IMG/VR virus record: IMGVR_UViG_3300031539_000088
Span: 1-44,005 of that record
DNA from: a virus
DNA length: 44,005 bases
Strand: one strand, 5' to 3'
The stretch's first letter is position 1; every line of letters starts with the position of its first letter. Shown in pieces: positions 3,579-15,274 of the stretch. The translations under genes were made by a program, and so were the position numbers. Under the pieces are notes generated by a model. It was not told the DNA's origin, did not search any database, and saw only the letters and a list, made by a program, of their open reading frames with translations.

Positions 3579-4279
3579 AGGAGGCGAGAGTCACATGCAA
3601 GATCGAGCAGATCAAATTGCCGGACATGGGGATCACACTAGTGCGTGGGCAGGAGGTCTGGTTTGGCGAACGCGAAGCACGACGCTCGGCCGACCTCAAC
3701 CATGCACGGAAGATCGGAGCCATCGATCTTCGGTGGGAGACGAGGTGTCGCGTGTCTAAACCGCCTGCGCCCCCGCACTTCCGAAAGCTGCGTCCAGGCG
3801 TTCGCAAGCAGATCGAGCCCTCGCGCCCTGAGCCTGCGAAGCCGGCCCCGGCTCCCGCTCCGAGCGTCGATCTCGACCTGATCGGGAAGCAGGTCAAGGC
3901 GCAGGTCGCGGCCGAGATGGCGCGGCAGATGGGTCAGCTTGAAGGTCAGATGGAGACGATGCGGACGGACATTGTGTCCCAGGTGACGGCGGCACTCTCC
4001 GGCCAGAAGGGCATGGACGCCGAGCAGATGGCGGCCGTGCTCAAGGCCACCTTGGAGCAAGTGCTCCCTGCCCATTCCGCTGCCGTCGCGGCACCCGCGG
4101 CGAAGGGACATGCAACGGTGTCGAGCGACGCCCCGATGTTCATTCCCGAGGGGATCGTGAAAGAAACCAAAGGCAAGGTCAAGGTTCAACAAGCCACCGG
4201 CTCGACGGGTGGTTTGGATGATGCCGCAGCGGCCTTGAAAGCATTGAAACGGAAAAAGAAGGACAAGACAAATGACTGA
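3575..4279 (+). CDS. Unknown protein with N-terminal beta domain and coiled coil
   Basis: The protein has 234 aa. Residues 1-55 form a compact beta-rich domain (GITLVRGQEVWFGEREARRS, then IGAIDLRWETRCRV). A Pro/Ala-rich linker follows at about 60-95, then a helix of Gln, Met and Glu at about 100-165, and a C-terminus rich in Ala and Lys (KALKRKKKDK). It is coupled on both sides: its start overlaps the neck gene (ATGA) and its end overlaps the actin-like ATPase gene (ATGACTGA). The tight coupling suggests that it works with the neck protein or with the ATPase, possibly as its partner or adaptor, but no ParR-like DNA-binding fold was recognised. Function unknown. Confidence 0.7.
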   Translation: MKEARVTCKIEQIKLPDMGITLVRGQEVWFGEREARRSADLNHARKIGAIDLRWETRCRVSKPPAPPHFRKLRPGVRKQIEPSRPEPAKPAPAPAPSVDLDLIGKQVKAQVAAEMARQMGQLEGQMETMRTDIVSQVTAALSGQKGMDAEQMAAVLKATLEQVLPAHSAAVAAPAAKGHATVSSDAPMFIPEGIVKETKGKVKVQQATGSTGGLDDAAAALKALKRKKKDKTND

Positions 4280-5300
4280 CGTAATGCCCGGCTGCGGCCT
4301 CGATTGTGGAACCATGAATTTCGTCTCGGCACGACGGACGGACGAAGGCGTCGTCACTCGTCGGATGCGTGATGCCTTCCTCGACCTGCCCCTCGACAGC
4401 AAGAAGATGCTGAAGCTCGGCGGGGTCAACTACGTGACGATGGGGGAGGGAGACGACAAGGCTCTCGTCGTTGTCGGCGACGCTGCGATGGAGTACGCCA
4501 ACCTTCTTAGCAAGCCTGTGCGGCGGCCTCTTCAAGCGGGCCTGATCGCAGCCGGTGAGATCGACGCCATCGAGGTACTCGGGGTGCTGATCAAGCATGT
4601 CCTCGGCGAGCCCGTCGTGGAGGGCGAGTATTGCTATTTCTCGGTTCCCGCCGCCCCGGTGGATGACCCGACGAAGAACGTGATCTACCACCAGGGTGTC
4701 CTCGATCGGATCATCTCGGAGTGTGGCTACACCCCGGTTCCGTCGAACGAAGCCTTGGCGATCATCTACGCGGAGACGGCGAAGGACGGCTTCTCAGGCA
4801 TCGGTATTTCGATGGGCTCGGGCATGAGCAACGTCGCTCTTGCCATCGGGACCGTGGAAGGCTTGGCCTTCTCCGTGGGCCGCGGAGGTGACTGGATCGA
4901 CGCGGGGGCTGCTACTGCCACAGGGGCGACACCGGAGAAAATCTGCGCGCTCAAAGAGGCCGGCATCGACCTGATGGCTCCGAAGAACCGGACGGAAGAG
5001 GCCATCTGCGTCTACTACAAGCACCACATCCAGTACGTGCTGGAGGTGTTCTTGGCCGAATTCGTCAAGATCAAGGACAAGTTTGCCATCCCGAAGCCCA
5101 TCCCGATCGTTGTCGGCGGTGGCACATCCAAGCCCGAGAATTTCATGGAATTCTTCCAGCAGGTGTTCGACCGGATGAAGCGCAAGTTCCCCATCGAGAT
5201 CAGCGAAATCCGTCACGCGTCGTCACCGCTCAACGCGGTGGCACACGGCCTGCTCATCCAGGCCGGGCAGGAATACGACGAGGATGAGGATGATGAGTGA
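4272..5300 (+). CDS. Actin-fold (MreB/Hsp70-like) ATPase
   Basis: The protein has 342 aa, the usual length for MreB/ParM-like proteins. The actin-superfamily motifs appear in order. Phosphate-1 is GLDCGTMN at 9-16 with Asp11. A connect-1 helix has SNEALAII at 158-165, with Glu160 at the catalytic Glu/Gln place. Phosphate-2 is ISMGSGMSNVA at 179-189. An RGGDWID block at 204-210 resembles the GGD-x-hD of MreB. The adenosine motif is IVVGGGTS at 279-286. In phosphate-2 the usual Asp is replaced by Ser180, so hydrolysis may be slow or changed. The C-terminus is very acidic. Phage actins are known to form filaments that position or segregate DNA or virions; here the gene sits among neck genes, so a role in assembly or localisation is inferred. 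Start and stop overlap neighbours by 8 bases each. Confidence 0.85.
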   Translation: MTDVMPGCGLDCGTMNFVSARRTDEGVVTRRMRDAFLDLPLDSKKMLKLGGVNYVTMGEGDDKALVVVGDAAMEYANLLSKPVRRPLQAGLIAAGEIDAIEVLGVLIKHVLGEPVVEGEYCYFSVPAAPVDDPTKNVIYHQGVLDRIISECGYTPVPSNEALAIIYAETAKDGFSGIGISMGSGMSNVALAIGTVEGLAFSVGRGGDWIDAGAATATGATPEKICALKEAGIDLMAPKNRTEEAICVYYKHHIQYVLEVFLAEFVKIKDKFAIPKPIPIVVGGGTSKPENFMEFFQQVFDRMKRKFPIEISEIRHASSPLNAVAHGLLIQAGQEYDEDEDDE

Positions 5301-6522: not shown

Positions 6523-7791
6523 TTGACAGATTCGGTCCAGCGTCGCTTCATCTTGGAGCTACGTCGGTTCTGGTCGTACCATCCGAAATTTCGGGACATT
6601 GTAGACCACATCCAGGGCAAGTATTCGTTCAAGGAGCGCCCGCAGCGGTCCATCGTGCTGAAGAACAGCAGCGCGAACCAATTCCAACTGGCTGCGGACA
6701 ACTTCCAGGGCACGGTGTTCAGTTACCTGCACCAAGCCCGGGTGGACAACTACCCTGGGGTGGCCTTGGAGTGGGTTCGGGAGGACGCCAAGGCGATTCG
6801 TCGCAACGGTGGTGCCTTCCCGTCCGCTCCGGGGATCTACTTCATCGAGATCACACACGTCGCCGAAAACTGCTCGTACTTTGAATTCTTCATCGACCCG
6901 TTGCTCGACCAGATCAACGAGACGGTGACGATGGTGAACGAGACGACCGGCGTGCTCCAGGCGGGCAAGTACCTCGACGGTACGGTCAGGCTGTTTCAGA
7001 TGCCCGGCAACGTCGTGTTGTTTGAAGGGATCAACTGGACAGGCGACCCTGATACGGGCGAGATCGAGTTGCTCCTGCCTCTGACCGAAGGGGGGTGGCT
7101 GTCTGCGGACTACCGATGGCCCGGCACCACGGACGCGGACTCGCCCGCGATTCGCCCTGTGGACCCCCTCACGGGCAACCCTCAGCCGTGGACCGGGATG
7201 CCCAACCGAGGGCTGGTCGAGCCTCTGCCGGGCGTCGTCCTGGCTTTTGGCACCCGGATCGAAGAAGGGGACCGCATGGCCGTCGTGGTCGGCCACAACC
7301 GTAGTGCGTCGGCACAAGAGTACGGCGGACGATGGGCTCTGAACATCGACTTCGACGTATCGGCCCGCGACCCCTACGCCCAACGCGAAATCCTCGACCG
7401 TACGATGCTCTACATTTGGGGTGTGCTTCGCTCGCGCCTTTCGACAGAAGGGATCGAAATCGAGTCGGTCAATGGCGGAGGCGAGTCGGAGGAAATCTAC
7501 GACGAGAACGGCGACGACTACTTCTACAACGCCTCCTTCTCGGTCCAACTCCAAACCGACTGGTCGATCCACGTCCCCATCGCGGCGACGATCCAGCGAG
7601 TGACTCCGGTGAGCCTGAGCGTGGAGCAGCAAGCGGCCCTATTGAACCCGGAAGAGGCGGCTGCCCTTCAATCGAATTTCCAGATCCTCGACAGCATGGG
7701 GCTCAAGCTGGTGGACGATCCGTACTTTGGCGGTCGGCCGGGCCGGAACCCAATTCTGCCGCGCTCGTCCACGTTTGAGGTCATTCGGTAG
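6523..7791 (+). CDS. Probable tail terminator / tail completion protein
   Basis: The protein has 422 aa. TTG at 6523 is the only reasonable start: an in-frame TAG lies at 6502-6504 and there is no ATG or GTG between. The C-terminal half holds a helix with AQREILDRTMLYIWGVLRS, then GIEIESVNGGGESEE, then YFYNASFSVQLQTDWSIHVP. Long helix, loop, then strands with T-D-W and a final V-P is the pattern of terminator-type proteins (lambda gpU-like fold) in myoviruses. The N-terminal half is beta-rich and probably an added domain, because classical terminators have only 130-200 aa. Its place before the sheath gene agrees with a terminator, which caps the sheath and tube at the neck. The call is by motif and order, not by a search. 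Confidence 0.55.
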   Translation: MTDSVQRRFILELRRFWSYHPKFRDIVDHIQGKYSFKERPQRSIVLKNSSANQFQLAADNFQGTVFSYLHQARVDNYPGVALEWVREDAKAIRRNGGAFPSAPGIYFIEITHVAENCSYFEFFIDPLLDQINETVTMVNETTGVLQAGKYLDGTVRLFQMPGNVVLFEGINWTGDPDTGEIELLLPLTEGGWLSADYRWPGTTDADSPAIRPVDPLTGNPQPWTGMPNRGLVEPLPGVVLAFGTRIEEGDRMAVVVGHNRSASAQEYGGRWALNIDFDVSARDPYAQREILDRTMLYIWGVLRSRLSTEGIEIESVNGGGESEEIYDENGDDYFYNASFSVQLQTDWSIHVPIAATIQRVTPVSLSVEQQAALLNPEEAAALQSNFQILDSMGLKLVDDPYFGGRPGRNPILPRSSTFEVIR

Positions 7792-7803
7792 GCTGGCTAT
7801 CCT
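7775..7803 (+). promoter_or_regulatory. Possible sigma-70-like promoter
   Basis: TTGAGG at 7775-7780 and TATCCT at 7798-7803 are 17 bases apart, just before the gene at 7817. The string CTGGCTAT around the second block is shared with the motif upstream of 272 (CTGGCTATAGG). It overlaps the end of the terminator gene. The evidence is weak on its own. Confidence 0.25.
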
Positions 7804-7816
7804 GAGCCCTCGGTAG

Positions 7817-9148
7817 ATGCCGAGCGTGCGTAGAGTCGCGGCCCGTTACCGGGAGGCCATGTTTGGGTTCGACACCCCCCGAAAGGAAAAGGGGCTTGGG
7901 GCTGCGGATGTGGCCGCTATTCGGCGTTTGGTGAGAGTCCCCGACCCACTATATGTGGCGATCGACCCGCTTAACCTGACCTGGGTTTACCGCCAAGGCG
8001 TTCGCCAGCCGAAGGTGTACCTGTACGAGACTCTGCGGCAAGCCTTCAAGGGAGGTTACAGCCCGAACAAGGCGGTGGCCGTGGTGAATCGCTCCGATTT
8101 GGACCCCTCCAAACTGATGCCCCAGAAGGCCGGAAGGATCGAATTCAAAGGGCGTATCCCGCGGGAAAACCTCTACATGTTCGTGACCCGGAACACGATG
8201 GGCCTGCCTCCCGGGTCGGACAAGTGGATGATTCCGGTTGTTCGGCGAGAGGGTGGGCGCTGGCGTTCGACCCGTCCCGTGGTCCCGTGGAAAGACCTCC
8301 CGACCGAGGACCCGGTACGTGGCCCGGCTGAGGCTGTCGATGGCCCCTATGGCGAGTACCTGTTCGGGGAGCTTCGGCCCGATGTGAGTGAGCCAAACAC
8401 CCCCGAGGAGTCCGCTCTGATTTCGGCTCTGATTTCGCATTACCAGGGCTCCGGCGACTCCTTTTCCAAACCGGCCTTGAGCGGCGCGGTGGCAGTGACA
8501 CTGCGGGCCGCCCATCAAAAAGGTCTGTACCCCGAGTGGCTGCAAGTGCCGTCCAAGTACAAGTACGCCTATCGGCTCATGGACAACATTTCGTCCTACG
8601 GGATGGAAAAGCTCTTGAAGGGCGATGAGATCGGTGAAGAGACCTACCCCACGGCGAACGTGGTCGAGAACACGGGCGGCACGTATCGGCCCCACAAGGG
8701 CAAGGTCACGTCGTGGACGGTGAGCAAGGAAGCGATTCGCAAAATGGTACAGGACTGGCGGTTCCGTGTGAGCCGCGAGTACCCCGATGGCGACGAGAAC
8801 ATCGCCATCGCCGTTGTGGATCTGGGGCAGGTAAGGGACAGCTTCATGCTGAACCCCGATCGGATCGCAGAGCTTGGGCTCGCGGGTGATTTCACCTATC
8901 AGAGCGAGGTGTTGGGGTGGGGATCCTTTCCGATGGCACGGTTCCTTTACGCCGAAGTGGACAACTCGGATTGGGAGTCGGGCAGAGACCAAGCGGAAGA
9001 GAACGAGGAGCGTCTTGACGAGGACGAAGACTTGGACTGGGCCGACCTCGATGGCTACTCCAGCGTCGAAGAATTCGACTCGGACATGGCGCAGTATTAC
9101 GCCAAGGCCCGAGAGGATCTGATTTCAGAGCTTGTCGCTGCCCTGTGA
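7817..9148 (+). CDS. Candidate ADP-ribosyltransferase-fold protein
   Basis: The protein has 443 aa. Residues 1-17 (MPSVRRVAARYREAMFG) form a basic amphipathic start. Residues 45-160 are beta-rich and unidentified. Residues about 230-385 show the R-S-E layout of ADP-ribosyltransferases: Tyr252-Arg253 at the end of a strand (KYKYAYRLM), the S-x-T-x-S stretch at 299-303 (VTSWTVSKEAI) followed by a helix, a strand IAIAVVDL, and Gln362-Ser363-Glu364 in YQSEVLGWG, matching the (Q/E)xE catalytic motif with the usual following V-L. The C-terminus is extremely acidic (EENEERLDEDEDLDWADLD). Such enzymes move ADP-ribose from NAD to proteins or nucleic acid; T4 Alt is a virion-packaged example. Location among tail genes suggests a virion protein. 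Without a structure comparison the call is tentative. Confidence 0.5.
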   Translation: MPSVRRVAARYREAMFGFDTPRKEKGLGAADVAAIRRLVRVPDPLYVAIDPLNLTWVYRQGVRQPKVYLYETLRQAFKGGYSPNKAVAVVNRSDLDPSKLMPQKAGRIEFKGRIPRENLYMFVTRNTMGLPPGSDKWMIPVVRREGGRWRSTRPVVPWKDLPTEDPVRGPAEAVDGPYGEYLFGELRPDVSEPNTPEESALISALISHYQGSGDSFSKPALSGAVAVTLRAAHQKGLYPEWLQVPSKYKYAYRLMDNISSYGMEKLLKGDEIGEETYPTANVVENTGGTYRPHKGKVTSWTVSKEAIRKMVQDWRFRVSREYPDGDENIAIAVVDLGQVRDSFMLNPDRIAELGLAGDFTYQSEVLGWGSFPMARFLYAEVDNSDWESGRDQAEENEERLDEDEDLDWADLDGYSSVEEFDSDMAQYYAKAREDLISELVAAL

Positions 9149-9151
9149 CCG

Positions 9152-9195
9152 TTGGCGCCCGATACCCCGCCTATAGAACCGGCATTTGTGACGAG
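9152..9195 (+). promoter_or_regulatory. Promoter-like motif, copy B
   Basis: TTGGCG at 9152-9157 (context GTTGGCGCCC, nearly identical to copy A), a 14-base gap, TATAGA at 9172-9177 (context CGCCTATAGAACCGGC), and ACGAG at 9191-9195. It lies between the stop at 9148 and the TTG start at 9204. The ACGAGGA end doubles as the ribosome binding site of the FmdB-like gene. Confidence 0.5.
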
Positions 9196-9203
9196 GACCC
9201 ACC

Positions 9204-9704
9204 TTGCCCATCTACGATTACCAGTGCGACGCCTGCGGGCTCCGATTTGAGAAGATGCTGAAAGCTGACGCAGCGAAGGCCGAATTGGCCTGTACTCGCT
9301 GCGCTAGTCTCGCTCAGCGCCGGCTCTCGGGGCCAGCGTTCGCGTTCGCCGGGGGCACCGACGGAGCCCTCCCGCAGAACACGGGAGTCGCCGGAGTGGA
9401 CCTCGACGTGGATCGGGCCATCGGCCGGGACGCCGAGCAGCAGTGGGGCGCGGTTCACGCGCGTCTCGACCGCAAGCGACAGATCATGGCGAGGACCGGA
9501 GCGTCGGGATTCGATCTCAGCGCGACCCCCTCGACCGCAGGCAGCCCCGACGGGGACTACCGAGTCATGGCTCCCTCCGAGCGCGCGGCGGCTGAGAAGG
9601 GCCGACAGGTTCACCACGCCGCGGTCAACAAGATCAAAGACTACGTGCGCACACGCAACAAGAATTCCCAACAGCCTACGGCTGGTGAGAGGGCTCGCTC
9701 GTAA
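9204..9704 (+). CDS. FmdB-type zinc-ribbon protein
   Basis: The protein has 166 aa. The N-terminus is the FmdB/CxxC_CxxC regulatory-protein domain: MPIYDYQCDACGLRFE, a second pair CTRC, then RRLSGPAFAFAGG, with Cys8, Cys11, Cys30 and Cys33 as zinc ligands. The match to the family's MPIYEYRC start shows that TTG at 9204 is the true start codon, supported by GAGGA six bases upstream. The family usually has 60-110 aa; here about 110 further residues follow, charged and Ala/Arg-rich, without recognised domains. In bacteria the domain was first linked to regulation of formamidase genes, but its biochemical role is unclear. It has its own promoter-like motif and lies just before the sheath gene, so a regulatory or virion role is possible. 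Confidence 0.8.
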   Translation: MPIYDYQCDACGLRFEKMLKADAAKAELACTRCASLAQRRLSGPAFAFAGGTDGALPQNTGVAGVDLDVDRAIGRDAEQQWGAVHARLDRKRQIMARTGASGFDLSATPSTAGSPDGDYRVMAPSERAAAEKGRQVHHAAVNKIKDYVRTRNKNSQQPTAGERARS

Positions 9705-9898: not shown

Positions 9899-9914
9899 GC
9901 GGCAAATTTGCCGC
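9899..9914. promoter_or_regulatory. Perfect 16 bp palindrome before the sheath gene
   Basis: GCGGCAAATTTGCCGC reads the same on both strands. It lies about 40 bases before the sheath start codon and has the same GCGGC/GCCGC arms as the hairpin at 9724-9736. It could be an operator for a dimeric regulator or an mRNA hairpin protecting the 5' end. It is followed at 9919-9933 by GGGAT-CTTGT-ATCCC, a second small hairpin. Confidence 0.5.
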
Positions 9915-9952
9915 CACAGGGATCTTGTATCCCACAAAGACGAGGTGAGAAA

Positions 9953-12900
9953 ATGGCCTTTCCCGGCTCCGTATATGCGCCCCCTGGTGTTTACACCCAA
10001 ACGCTTTTCAACAATCCGGTCCAAGCCGCAGTCACAGGGGTGCGAATCCCTGTCTACATCGGCACCGGCAACGAAATTCTCTCTCAGGAAGATCTACAGG
10101 TCGTCCGCGGGTCGAGCGCTTCCGTAGACCAAGGAGTTCCCAAGGAGGATCTCGATGGTCGCGCGGTTGCCGACATTCTCGCGTCCGGTCAGGTAATCCT
10201 GGGCAACTTCGACGGCGAGCGCCGTCTGGTTCAGGTTCGTAATTTCCCGATCGTGACGGGCGACGGAAGCGGCACGACCGCGACCAACGCTGCCTCGATC
10301 TCAGTGGAGATCAATGGTCGCCCCGACGTGGTGCTGACTGTTCGTGGAGCCGAGGGAATTCTGGAGCTTTCGACGGCTCCCCGGCCGACGGATGAGGTAC
10401 GTGTCACGTACTTCTTCAACCGGACGGACACCGCGGCCACGGACAACGTGTCGTCTCAGGTGACTCCCGGGGCAGCGGTTCTCCGCGGTCTCAAAGGTGA
10501 GCCCAGCGGCGGCTACGAGGTTCTTGCTGGGAACAACACCCTGATCGTCACCGTCGATGGTGTCGATGTGGTGGTCGATTTCGGGACTGGCTTCAAATCT
10601 GCCTCAACCCTCACCTCTCTGATCAACGGCGCGGGCGCGGCGACCACACTCAACGCCGTGACCTATGGGACCAACTTCGGAGAGGTCGCCATCGCACTGT
10701 CTGGTGCGGAGAGCTTGGTCATCGGCGATGGTTCCGCCAACACGTTGCTCGGGTACACCACTGGCGCCTCCACCTCGCGCCAGACGGTGTTCTACACGTT
10801 CAACGGTCCCATCGTTCAGGGGGACAACGGCGGCGTCACTACCACAGATCCGTCCAAGGTCACTGTCTTGATCGACGGGGCTGCTGTCACGCCTCTGGCC
10901 GTCAACGGTCAGACCCGTGCTGTCACCCTTCCCTTCGCGCCGCCCAGCGGCTCGACGGTCACGGTCAGCTACTTTTTCAACACCTACCAGGACACGTTCG
11001 ACTACCTCGCGCACATCAATGTCACCGACATTCAGCGCGTCGGCGTCGTGCCCGGTAACAGCGACTTCATCGAGCAGGCCGACTTCGTTCTGAAGAACGA
11101 CCTGATCGTGTGGGGAACCGCCGCCCTCATCGAGAGCGGTGTGAACACGCAGGGCACCGCCCTGTTCAACGAGGCGCAGATCACAGGGAACCTTGTCGAT
11201 GTGCAGTCTTACTTGGAGGTTGCCTCGCCCGTCTCGGACCAGACGGTCAACCCGCCGAAGACGAGCACGACCACGTTCCAGCTTCAGCGCCAACCCACCA
11301 CGGGTAACGGTCGCAACACCCCGCTGGGCCAAGACCTGTTCCAGACCGTCTCCAACGGTCGGATCGACCTGCCGACCAACCGTCCCGATCTGGTCATCGC
11401 CTACTGGGGCTGGAGCGTGCAGGACGCCTTGGAGCGCGGCCCCGTCTCGGTGCTTCGTGTTGAAGGCGCCGAGATCACTCTCGGTGAGAGCGTGCCTGTC
11501 GGCGCGACCGTCTACGCCACGTACTACTACAACACCCTCGTTGACGAGGAGTACACCCTTGAGGTTGACGTTCCCGGCCCCGCTGGTATCGGCACCTACT
11601 TCATCAAGGACAAGAACGGGCGTGACATTTTCACGCCGCGGTTCGGCGTCAAGGGCACCTTGCTCACCGGGATCACGATTCAATTCCCGAGCGGTTCGGA
11701 GCTTACGCCCGACGTTCGCTTTGAGTCGGGTGTCACCGGGCCGGTCGAGGAGACCGTCACCGTCACCTTCGCCAACAAGGATGCGACCCTCGCCAAGTAC
11801 AGCGTGCCCGGCTCGGGTCCGTACTTCACGATCACGGACGCTTCCGATCACGCTCGGTTCACCATCGACTCCACGGCCCTCACGGGCGGTGGTGCCGGTA
11901 TCGACCTGAGCCGCGTCGATGGCATTGAGGGCCTGGGTTTCTCCGCTCACCTGTTGGGTGAGGAGATCGCCTACACCTCGGCGTCGGGTCAGACGACCTA
12001 CGACGTGGAAACCGGCGTCAACGACGAGCTTGCGCTCACCCTCGATGGTGTGACGATCACGATCGATGTGCCGCCGGGAACCGGCGTGGATGCCGACCGC
12101 TATGTCACGGCGATCAACGAGCAAGCCAAGAGCACGCTCAATCCGCCCGTCTACACCTCGGCGACCCGTTTCACGGGCGCGACCGAGATCACCGCGGCCG
12201 AGTACGACAAGTTCACGTTCAACTACACAGGCGACGTGAACGGGTCCTCTGGCCCGCTGACTGTGACCATCCCGCCGGGCACCTACAACAGCCCGGCCAC
12301 CCTCGCCACGGCGATTCAGGGTGTCGTGACGGTTGCCCTCGGTACGTTGGGTGCTGGCTTCGCCGGCATCGCTATCACGGTCGGTGCGAACGCTGACGGT
12401 CAACTGACCTACGCGCTCGACAACGCCACCGCGGACAACGGTACGGCCTGGACCGACACCATTACGGTGACGGGTGCTCCGGTGCCGGTCCCCGGCGATA
12501 CGGTGGAGATCACCGACCCGCTGGGCAACGTCGAGGTCTTCACGGCGACCGCGACCGCGACCGTCATCGGTGCAGGTGCTCGCAACTTCGACGTGTCATC
12601 GGGCCTTGTTGCCACGATCAGCCTGGAGCTTACCAGCGCGATCAACGACGTGACCAACGGCATCGCCGACACGCTTACGGCTGTCGATGGTGGTGGTACG
12701 GTGGCGCTCACGGCGGTCAACGTCGGCGTGATCAGCAACCTGATCTCGATCGCCTTCACCGGCTCGGTCGGTGCCTTCACTCTCCTCGGTGCCGTTCCGG
12801 GTACTGCGGAAGGCGGTGGCTACCTTGAGTTCCTCGACGGCCCCACGGCTGCGGAGGATTTCTCGGTGCTCTCGGGCATCTCCACCGATGCTGCCGTTGG

Positions 12901-15274
12901 CGGAAATCAGACCAAGCTGCTCAATGGCGACGTTGTGCGTCGATTCTCGGTCGCAGGCACCTCTGGTGCTCTGGTCTACGACCGAATCCTCGTTCGCAAC
13001 CGCGTTGTGCCGGGATCGGGCTCCATGAGCCACTTCCCGCAGGTCGGGCAGAGCCAACTGAAGGTCGAGGGCAACAGCGCCATCGAGCAGACGGGCCTGC
13101 TTCCGAACAGCGAAGGCTCCGCTGGCATGCGTGCCACGGTCCAGCCTGCAACCCTGCTTGGTCGGGTCGGCTTCTCCGCCGGTCAGATCGCAACGGGTAC
13201 GTTCGGCGACGAGCGTGATGGACAGCCCACCGTCCAACTGTTTGAGGCGGGAGGCACCCAGCCGCAGAACAACGTGTTCAAGGTCAACATCGACGGCACT
13301 CCCGTCGAGATCGTGTTCACCGATTCGGCTGGTGCGGCGATTCCGATCGCCGGTTCCGCTGACGTTCCACTTGGCCCGCTGGGCTCGCCGGACACGGTTC
13401 TCACACAGATCAACACGGCTCTGACCGCCGCGGGCCTTCCCGGTGCGGTTCGACAAGAGGGCGCAGGCATCCGTTTCACCTCTCTGGTGACGGACACGAC
13501 CTCTGCGGTCACGATTGACGACGGCAACGCCAACTCGACTCTCGGGTTCTCGGCTGGAAACACCGACGACCGGGATCCGGTACAGCCGGAGGTCATCGCA
13601 TCGGCACTCATGTCTCACCACAGTTCCTCGGTCTCGGCCGAGTACCTGACCTGGGACAGCCCGTCTTCGACTCACTTTGCTGGCCTCGCGCTGGCGGGCG
13701 TGATTCGGGATCAGGCGAACGCCGAGTTCCTCTACATCCAGTCGCAGGCGGCCACGGTCGGCGGGCTCGGTGTGTCCTCCAACATTCTGTTGGAGACCCC
13801 GGCTTCGCCCAACGGCTCCTGGCTCCTCCCTGGGACCAACCTTCTCGCCTTGGCGGGGGCTGGTGCTTCGGGCGAGGAAGGCATCTCGGGCTTCTACGTC
13901 ACGTCCTCGGACACGACGCGGGGCTCGGGCTCGGCCAACACCTCGGTACTCAACACGGGTACAGGCCAGGACGGCGCGGTGGGTCAGACCTACCGCGACA
14001 CGAACACCGGATTGGTGTTCACCGTGCTGGAGCGCGAGGGCGGCGGAACATACCCGACGGGTGTGACCTCCACCTTCACCTTTGAGGTGCGGCGCAAGGT
14101 CACGACCGACAGCAACTTGCCGGTCAACGCCTTGCCGGGTGTCGAGCTTCTGGTGACGAACACCAGCGGCATCGGCGTCGGGGACACCTCCATCGTCACG
14201 ACGGTGGAGCGTGGGGGCAACGAGCCGGCCATCGGCGACCTGTACTACGTCACCTACGACTACACGAAGGACAATTTCGACACGGCTCTCTTCACTCGGT
14301 TGGCGACAATCGAGGCCAACTACGGGCGCGTTGCCCAGGAGAACCTCGTCACTCTGGCGTCCTACCTCGGCATCATCAACGGCGCCGTCATCGTGGGTAT
14401 CAAGCAGGTGGTCAAGCAGGTCGGATCGAATCAGGCCAGCGTTGCAGACTACCGTGACGCGTTGATCGACCTTCGCGGTCCTCTGCCGGGCGGACTCTCG
14501 CTCGACCAGATCACGCCGTTGCGGGGTGACAACGCCGACCTGTACCAATTCCTGCGGATCGAGAACGACATTCAGTCGTCCATCCGATACCGGCAGGAGC
14601 GCACCTCGATCGTAGGTACGTCCTCGGGTACGCAGATCAGTGGGGCCGGCGATCTTGCCAACGCCCTGTCTGCCACCCGTATGCGGGTTGTGTACCCCGA
14701 CATTGTGACCATGACGCTGACAGACGCGCTTGGGAACGATGACGAGGTGCTGGTCGATGGCACGTTCCTCGCTTCGGCGATGGCGGGCAACCGGGTCTCC
14801 CCGAACATCGACGTGGCGACTCCATGGACGAACGCGCGGCTCGTAGGGTTCAACCAACTCGCTCGCACGCTCGACGCGGTGGAGCAGAACCAGCTTGCCG
14901 TTCGCGGTGTGACGGTTCTTGAGGATCGCGCCCCTGCGATCCGTGTCCGTCAGGGTCTCTCGACGGACATTAGCAACGTGCTGACCAAGACCCCGACCGT
15001 GATCACCATCGCGGACGAGGTTCAGCGTCAGGCTCGGATCACACTTGACCGCTTCATCGGTGTCAAGTTCCTGCCCACCATCCTTCAGCAAATCGAAGGT
15101 CGCATGACCTTCATGTTCAAGGGTCTCTCGGCGGCCGAGATTATCACGACGTTCACGGGCATCCGCGCATCCACCACGACCGACCCCACGGTTGTCGAGG
15201 TGGAAGCCTTCTACCAACCCGTGTTCCCGCTGCTCTACATCGTCGTGACGTTCAACCTGCGTTCGACGCTGTAA
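9953..15274 (+). CDS. Giant contractile tail sheath protein
   Basis: The protein has 1773 aa from ATG 9953, chosen because GAGGTGA lies four bases upstream at 9942-9948; an upstream TTG at 9908 is rejected. The N-terminus (FPGSVYAPPGVYTQTLF) and the last 330 residues (about 1440-1773, with DRFIGVKFLPTILQQIEGRM and a final PLLYIVVTFNL) have the form of the conserved myovirus sheath core. Sheath proteins usually have 400-700 aa; here about 1000 extra residues are inserted. These include three beta domains ending in (T/S)YFFN or TYYYN near residues 152, 342 and 527, and four flagellin-IN-like repeats near 192-272, 683-738, 847-955 and 1105-1203 (for example TLIVTVDGVDVVVDF...LINGAG). The sheath contracts to drive the tube through the envelope; the insertions probably decorate its outside. 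A strong terminator follows. Confidence 0.85.
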   Translation: MAFPGSVYAPPGVYTQTLFNNPVQAAVTGVRIPVYIGTGNEILSQEDLQVVRGSSASVDQGVPKEDLDGRAVADILASGQVILGNFDGERRLVQVRNFPIVTGDGSGTTATNAASISVEINGRPDVVLTVRGAEGILELSTAPRPTDEVRVTYFFNRTDTAATDNVSSQVTPGAAVLRGLKGEPSGGYEVLAGNNTLIVTVDGVDVVVDFGTGFKSASTLTSLINGAGAATTLNAVTYGTNFGEVAIALSGAESLVIGDGSANTLLGYTTGASTSRQTVFYTFNGPIVQGDNGGVTTTDPSKVTVLIDGAAVTPLAVNGQTRAVTLPFAPPSGSTVTVSYFFNTYQDTFDYLAHINVTDIQRVGVVPGNSDFIEQADFVLKNDLIVWGTAALIESGVNTQGTALFNEAQITGNLVDVQSYLEVASPVSDQTVNPPKTSTTTFQLQRQPTTGNGRNTPLGQDLFQTVSNGRIDLPTNRPDLVIAYWGWSVQDALERGPVSVLRVEGAEITLGESVPVGATVYATYYYNTLVDEEYTLEVDVPGPAGIGTYFIKDKNGRDIFTPRFGVKGTLLTGITIQFPSGSELTPDVRFESGVTGPVEETVTVTFANKDATLAKYSVPGSGPYFTITDASDHARFTIDSTALTGGGAGIDLSRVDGIEGLGFSAHLLGEEIAYTSASGQTTYDVETGVNDELALTLDGVTITIDVPPGTGVDADRYVTAINEQAKSTLNPPVYTSATRFTGATEITAAEYDKFTFNYTGDVNGSSGPLTVTIPPGTYNSPATLATAIQGVVTVALGTLGAGFAGIAITVGANADGQLTYALDNATADNGTAWTDTITVTGAPVPVPGDTVEITDPLGNVEVFTATATATVIGAGARNFDVSSGLVATISLELTSAINDVTNGIADTLTAVDGGGTVALTAVNVGVISNLISIAFTGSVGAFTLLGAVPGTAEGGGYLEFLDGPTAAEDFSVLSGISTDAAVGGNQTKLLNGDVVRRFSVAGTSGALVYDRILVRNRVVPGSGSMSHFPQVGQSQLKVEGNSAIEQTGLLPNSEGSAGMRATVQPATLLGRVGFSAGQIATGTFGDERDGQPTVQLFEAGGTQPQNNVFKVNIDGTPVEIVFTDSAGAAIPIAGSADVPLGPLGSPDTVLTQINTALTAAGLPGAVRQEGAGIRFTSLVTDTTSAVTIDDGNANSTLGFSAGNTDDRDPVQPEVIASALMSHHSSSVSAEYLTWDSPSSTHFAGLALAGVIRDQANAEFLYIQSQAATVGGLGVSSNILLETPASPNGSWLLPGTNLLALAGAGASGEEGISGFYVTSSDTTRGSGSANTSVLNTGTGQDGAVGQTYRDTNTGLVFTVLEREGGGTYPTGVTSTFTFEVRRKVTTDSNLPVNALPGVELLVTNTSGIGVGDTSIVTTVERGGNEPAIGDLYYVTYDYTKDNFDTALFTRLATIEANYGRVAQENLVTLASYLGIINGAVIVGIKQVVKQVGSNQASVADYRDALIDLRGPLPGGLSLDQITPLRGDNADLYQFLRIENDIQSSIRYRQERTSIVGTSSGTQISGAGDLANALSATRMRVVYPDIVTMTLTDALGNDDEVLVDGTFLASAMAGNRVSPNIDVATPWTNARLVGFNQLARTLDAVEQNQLAVRGVTVLEDRAPAIRVRQGLSTDISNVLTKTPTVITIADEVQRQARITLDRFIGVKFLPTILQQIEGRMTFMFKGLSAAEIITTFTGIRASTTTDPTVVEVEAFYQPVFPLLYIVVTFNLRSTL

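What the first reader, a model, noticed from the sequence alone, without database searches (positions are those of the whole stretch)
7817..9148. Candidate virion ADP-ribosyltransferase between tail terminator and sheath genes
Arg253, the S-x-T-x-S at 299-303 and Gln362-x-Glu364 followed by V-L occur in the right order and spacing for an R-S-(Q/E)xE ADP-ribosyltransferase. The QxE form is the version known from C3-like enzymes that modify residues other than arginine. Location in the tail cluster suggests an enzyme carried in the particle and injected, as with T4 Alt, but with an uncharacterised N-terminal domain and a very acidic C-terminus.
Basis: partly seen in the sequence, partly recalled or inferred. 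Interest (0 to 1): 0.65.

Follow-up and report, generated by a model that had tools for sequence, protein, structure and literature searches.

The report
Huge-phage candidate injected ADP-ribosyltransferase
A giant bacterial virus carries, as a one-off gene slotted into its tail-gene cluster, a protein that looks like an enzyme packed into the virus particle and injected to chemically tag host molecules; this kind of weapon is known from phage T4, but this one is a rare new family with a different apparent packing label.

Summary
No family library, PDB sequence or phage record matches it. Its C-terminal module (residues ~173-395) has four IMG/VR relatives, two of them near-identical. These act as a held-out test of the predicted active site: Arg253, Thr301 and Glu364 are invariant, Gln362 alternates Q/E, Ser299 is S or G, and Ser303 is not conserved. 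The link to T4 Alt by profile-profile comparison is weak, and HMMER finds none. ART is likely but unproven.

The neighbourhood argument is weak. In all 29 related loci that hold both flanking genes this gene is absent, even at 84% identity in the neighbour, and the slot holds varying accessory genes. Packaging is better supported by leaders: three relatives carry T4-type capsid-targeting leaders, and the window protein starts MPSVRRVAARYREA, a motif enriched at N-termini of huge-phage proteins (13 against 1.8 expected), several of them effector-like.

Best reading: a head-packaged, injected ART-like effector acting as T4 Alt does. It is a new member of a known kind; the leader is the more novel part.

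The parts
7817..9148 (+). Candidate injected ART-like effector gene, 443 aa
   Evidence: Open frame with ATG start; conserved C-terminal module in L049-L051 and L055
7817..7876 (+). N-terminal leader MPSVRRVAARYREAMFGFDT (residues 1-20), candidate packaging signal
   Evidence: Motif [RK][VIM]A.[RKQ][YFWH] near the initiator Met: 13 N-termini against mean 1.8 for permuted motifs, 0 of 719 reach 13 (stricter version 11 against 1.4)
7904..8341 (+). Orphan N-terminal domain (residues ~30-175), no relatives found
   Evidence: No match in viral contigs or among 23,246 ORFs held; boundaries are approximate
8333..9001 (+). Putative ART catalytic module (residues ~173-395)
   Evidence: 26-35% identical to L049, L050, L051, L055
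8573..8575 (+). Arg253 codon (candidate NAD-binding Arg, YKYAYR)
   Evidence: Invariant in all 5 sequences
8711..8719 (+). Ser299-Trp300-Thr301 codons (STS-like motif)
   Evidence: Trp and Thr invariant, Ser299 is Gly in L055
8900..8908 (+). Gln362-Ser-Glu364 codons ((Q/E)xE motif)
   Evidence: Glu364 invariant; position 362 is Q in four rows, E in L055
9002..9145 (+). Acidic C-terminal tail (residues 396-443), 17 D/E and 3 K/R of 48
   Evidence: Composition
6523..7791 (+). Upstream neighbour, related to Tunturi_5 gp324 annotated tail terminator
   Evidence: tblastn to L003 13831-14313, E 1e-9, inside gp324; 41-84% identical in other relatives
9204..9704 (+). Downstream neighbour, zinc-ribbon protein
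   Evidence: PF09723, E 8.6e-12; next to the upstream neighbour in most relatives

Best explanation
The gene encodes a mono-ADP-ribosyltransferase-like effector of a huge contractile-tailed phage. It is made late, drawn into the prohead through its N-terminal leader (MPSVRRVAARYREA), packed with the DNA and injected at infection. There the C-terminal module (residues ~173-395) would bind NAD through Arg253 and Ser299/Thr301 and use Glu364, with Gln362, to transfer ADP-ribose to a host molecule, as T4 Alt does. The orphan N-terminal domain and acidic tail may govern target choice or packing. Shown: the ORF, a module conserved in four other phage contigs, invariance of R, T and E with Q/E alternation, the leader statistics, and absence from syntenic relatives. 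Inferred: ART fold and chemistry, timing, packaging, injection and target.
For: L055 reads NEMETI where T4 Alt reads NEMEVI. HHalign against a 10-sequence Alt profile puts Arg253 on the Alt Tyr-Arg and Q-S-E on the Alt E-M-E. L049-L051 carry T4-type capsid-targeting leaders (9 hits in three records, about 0.07 expected); the same motif hits only ipII and ipIII in 64 kb of T4. The window leader recurs on other effector-like huge-phage proteins. ARTs occur in over 40% of jumbo phages and about 44% of phage ARTs lie in packaging contexts (PMC9503650).
Against: No fold: AF2 pLDDT 34 and 38. No match to any ART family by sequence or to Alt by HMMER. The HHalign score is reached by 3 of 150 column shuffles and 3 of 60 unrelated families, and S-W-T is not aligned with S-T-S. 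Ser299 is Gly in L055. No virion proteomics; the leader's role is inferred.
Confidence: 0.6

Rival explanations
1. An ART-like enzyme that is not packaged: it is made in the infected cell, like T4 ModA and ModB, and the N-terminal motif is an unrelated helix.
For: Phage ARTs also act after synthesis in the cell (T4 ModA/ModB; PMC9503650). The gene is an accessory insertion, so its position says little. It has no T4-type leader.
Against: The leader motif is statistically enriched at N-termini, and relatives L049-L051 of the same module carry T4-type capsid-targeting leaders.
Confidence: 0.17
2. A packaged, injected effector with a different fold and chemistry; the R, SxT and QxE are conserved for another reason.
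For: No sequence link to a known ART, no usable model, and a weak profile score. Conserved Trp300, Gly and Asn-Pro positions are not classical ART marks.
Against: Order and spacing of R, SxT and (Q/E)xE, the Q/E alternation before an invariant Glu, and the NEMExI loop of L055.
Confidence: 0.15
3. A minor structural tail or neck protein that belongs to the cluster it sits in.
For: It lies between tail genes; in L055 the relative lies between a head-tail adaptor gene and the sheath gene.
Against: Absent from every syntenic relative, including one 84% identical in the adjacent gene. L049-L051 sit among leader-bearing accessory genes, with a NUDIX, an SNase and a polynucleotide-kinase-like gene nearby. 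A structural part should be conserved.
Confidence: 0.06

Closest known systems
T4 Alt (gpAlt; phage Alt/VIP2-type R-S-E ARTs)
   Same: Predicted R ... S/T ... (Q/E)xE catalytic order; candidate N-terminal packing leader; accessory to assembly; L055 shares the NEMExI loop.
   Different: No detectable sequence membership; QxE instead of ExE in the window protein; different leader; orphan N-terminal domain; about 440 aa against 682 aa.
T4 internal proteins with capsid-targeting sequence (IPII, IPIII)
   Same: Relatives L049-L051 have the same leader pattern MK..x..[FWY][IL]xE, shown in T4 to direct proteins into the prohead (PMC9958956).
   Different: The window protein has a different leader (RVAARY type); IPs are not enzymes of this kind.
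Polyvalent proteins of phages and conjugative elements (PMC5512222)
   Same: Leader-bearing huge-phage proteins include a 1510-aa protein with a nucleotidyltransferase domain, an HExxH motif and a weak 2H match, as in that class.
   Different: The window protein is not multi-enzyme, and ARTs of polyvalent proteins have an H-Y-D site.
C3-like exoenzymes (QxE ARTs)
   Same: Q-x-E in place of E-x-E (own knowledge of the class).
   Different: No sequence match; not compared directly.

Membership tests
ART superfamily, R-S-E type | Conserved Arg, S/T-x-S/T and (Q/E)xE in order | tested here: met
   R253, T301 and E364 invariant, 362 Q/E, S299 S or G over 5 sequences
ART superfamily, R-S-E type | Split beta-sheet fold with the three elements around one NAD pocket | tested here: inconclusive
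   AF2 pLDDT 33.9 alone and 37.7 with 5 sequences; no fold search run on such models
ART superfamily, R-S-E type | Sequence match to a known ART family | tested here: not met
   No match in Pfam, NCBIfam or PDB sequences; PF03496 and PF01129 not found at E up to 10
ART superfamily, R-S-E type | NAD-dependent ADP-ribose transfer | not testable with these tools
   Needs biochemistry
Alt family of T4-like phages | Sequence homology to Alt | tested here: not met
   hmmsearch with a 10-sequence Alt profile gives negative scores; HHalign 21.9 is within reach of controls
Head-packaged (ejected) phage proteins | N-terminal capsid-targeting sequence of T4 type | tested here: not met
   Window protein lacks it; relatives L049-L051 have it
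Head-packaged (ejected) phage proteins | A leader shared with other predicted injected proteins of the same phage group | tested here: met
   13 N-termini against mean 1.8, none of 719 permutations as high; bearers listed
Head-packaged (ejected) phage proteins | Presence in purified particles | not testable with these tools
   Uncultured virus; no proteomics

The most novel reading that the evidence does not exclude
The leader [RK][VI]A[AS][RK][YFWH] is an undescribed virion-packaging signal of a huge-phage group, the counterpart of the T4 capsid-targeting sequence. It marks a transferable set of injected effectors (ART-like enzymes, HExxH proteins, nucleotidyltransferase-bearing multidomain proteins), and the window ART module moved between T4-like and huge phages by exchanging one leader type for another.
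Probability: 0.4. Interest if true: 0.7.

Novelty: new member of a known kind. Interest (0 to 1): 0.45.

Why it matters
Injected ARTs are a main way phages seize host machinery. A family that no library recognises shows how much of this arsenal is hidden by fast divergence. If the leader is a packaging signal, it would give a simple sequence label for predicting which proteins of uncultured huge phages are carried in the particle and injected.

Tried and rejected
Whole-protein searches in phages, viral contigs and genome contigs found nothing; a query limited to the catalytic part found the relatives. The N-terminal part alone found none. Whole-record searches of 22 huge phages found no copy elsewhere; a profile search of 15 records found only the four known relatives. 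A degenerate DNA scan around the QxE loop gave only known members, and more genome and viral scans added none. Fold searches were not run, because a model at pLDDT 38 gives meaningless matches. A structural tail role was rejected because the gene is absent from relatives. The idea that the N-terminal domain is a second, degenerate ART domain could not be tested (no relatives, no model). The second candidate ART (L084) does not match the family profile. A possible late-promoter element (CTATA or GCTATC before 7817, 9204 and 15969) was seen but not tested. The bare motif in its loose form is common (8% of ORFs).

Full report
OBSERVATION. The ORF at 7817-9148 (+) encodes 443 aa from an ATG. Its closest relatives are huge phages: uncultured LR745208.1 (485 kb; sheath 45% identical over 92%), Tunturi_5 (309 kb, host Tunturiibacter), and 45 IMG/VR loci on contigs of up to 619 kb. 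The bare motif is weak evidence: 8% of 300-600 aa ORFs contain R..SxT..[QE]xE, though none of 1061 contain the stricter YR..SxT..[QE]xE[VI][LIV].

FAMILY. The full protein matches nothing convincing in Pfam, PHROGs, NCBIfam, PDB sequences, phages, viral contigs or genome contigs. A search limited to the catalytic part found L049, L050 and L051 (33-34% identity, E 4e-23 to 5e-19), and an alignment-based search added L055. L050 and L051 are near-identical. Homology covers window residues ~173-395; the relatives are about 225-280 aa and lack the window's N-terminal domain. In the alignment Arg253 (YKYAYRLM), Trp300, Thr301 and Glu364 are invariant; position 362 is Q in four rows and E in L055; Ser299 is Gly in L055; Ser303 is not conserved. 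With 24 invariant of about 203 positions, R, T and E all being invariant by chance is about 0.2% (my estimate).

ART OR NOT. AF2 failed twice (pLDDT 34 and 38), so the fold is untested. Known ART profiles do not ring. Against a 10-sequence profile of phage Alt proteins HMMER finds nothing. HHalign gives score 21.9 and aligns Arg253 with the Alt Tyr-Arg and Q-S-E with the Alt E-M-E, but not S-W-T with S-T-S. That score is reached by 3 of 150 column shuffles and by 3 of 60 unrelated huge-phage families, so it is only suggestive. L055 reads NEMETI where T4 Alt reads NEMEVI. I put the ART assignment by itself at about 0.75.

NEIGHBOURHOOD. In all 29 related loci that hold both flanking genes this gene is missing; in most of them the two flanking genes are adjacent. 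L004, 84% identical in the upstream gene, matches the window up to that gene's stop codon and again at a CCTATA...GAGGAC stretch before the zinc-ribbon gene, with nothing comparable between. In other relatives the slot holds a GIY-YIG endonuclease (L045), an apparent peptidoglycan-binding protein (L028) or small unknown genes (L034). Whole-record searches of 22 relatives found no copy elsewhere. The gene is therefore an accessory insertion, and position alone does not argue for a tail role. Its GC content matches the flanks, so there is no compositional sign of recent foreign origin.

PACKAGING. Relatives L049-L051 lie in clusters of genes whose products begin MK-x-[FLY]-x-x-[FWY]-[IL]-x-E: 2, 4 and 3 hits in their records against 0 to 0.04 expected from shuffled motifs. 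I wrote that motif from knowledge of the T4 sequence; in 64 kb of T4 it hits exactly ipII and ipIII, whose leaders are shown to direct proteins into the prohead (PMC9958956; PMC7411985). L055 has a looser leader (MRTLWEYINLLVEEE, not caught by the motif) and lies between a head-tail adaptor gene and a sheath gene. The window protein begins MPSVRRVAARYREA instead. The motif [RK][VIM]A.[RK][YFWH] just after the initiator Met is enriched in the huge-phage material: 11 against 1.4 for 60 permuted motifs, and, with Q allowed, 13 against 1.8 with none of 719 permutations as high. The 13 include one gene counted at two starts and a few doubtful frames. Its bearers include two HExxH proteins (L108:16620-18551 and L121:1725-2852), a 1510-aa protein with PolyA_pol (E 2.5e-19), a weak LigT match, an HExxH motif and four copies of the leader motif along its length, an FYHGT protein with a weak PARP match (L105:14197-14688, E 0.067), and a second R / WTT / EQE candidate (L084:6527-7207). 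I read this leader as a likely packaging signal. That is inference; there is no virion proteomics.

MECHANISM. The most likely course is synthesis with late genes, recruitment into the prohead, injection with the DNA, and ADP-ribosylation of a host molecule, as for T4 Alt. The target is unknown. The QxE form suggests a target other than arginine by analogy with C3-like enzymes (own knowledge), but the ExE in L055 shows that this position varies within the family. Confidence in the joint claim is 0.6.

PLACE IN WHAT IS KNOWN. ARTs occur in over 40% of jumbo phages, and about 44% of phage ARTs sit in packaging contexts (PMC9503650), so the kind is known. What is new is the family, the orphan N-terminal domain and the leader. 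Membership of the ART superfamily is not claimed as shown: the fold is untested and sequence matches to known families were tested and not met.

Noticed in passing
4272-5300: Actin-family protein (Pfam Volactin, E 8e-68), an archaeal cell-shape actin family (PMC10869688), conserved in the tail cluster of more than 20 huge-phage relatives.
   Followed up: partly
9908-15274: Very long tail sheath protein (1788 aa); only its C-terminal part matches ordinary mycobacteriophage sheaths.
   Followed up: no
L108:10981-15513: 1510-aa multidomain protein (weak 2H, HExxH, PolyA_pol) with four copies of the RVA.[RQ]Y-type motif at residues 6, 290, 906 and 1116; two lie shortly before domains, which could be processing or packing sites.
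   Followed up: partly
L084:6527-7207: Leader-bearing protein of the window's closest relative with YYRG, HWTTN and EQEVV, a second candidate R-S-ExE ART unrelated in sequence to the window family.
   Followed up: partly
7792-9203: The slot between the terminator-like and zinc-ribbon genes is an insertion hot spot: GIY-YIG endonuclease (L045), peptidoglycan-binding-like protein (L028), paired small genes (L034), inverted zinc-ribbon gene in L032.
   Followed up: partly
7796, 9171, 15902: CTATA or GCTATC elements just upstream of three genes, CCTATAAAT in L004; possible late promoters.
   Followed up: no
L050:4105-5829: NUDIX-domain protein near the ART relative in a cluster of leader-bearing genes.
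   Followed up: no
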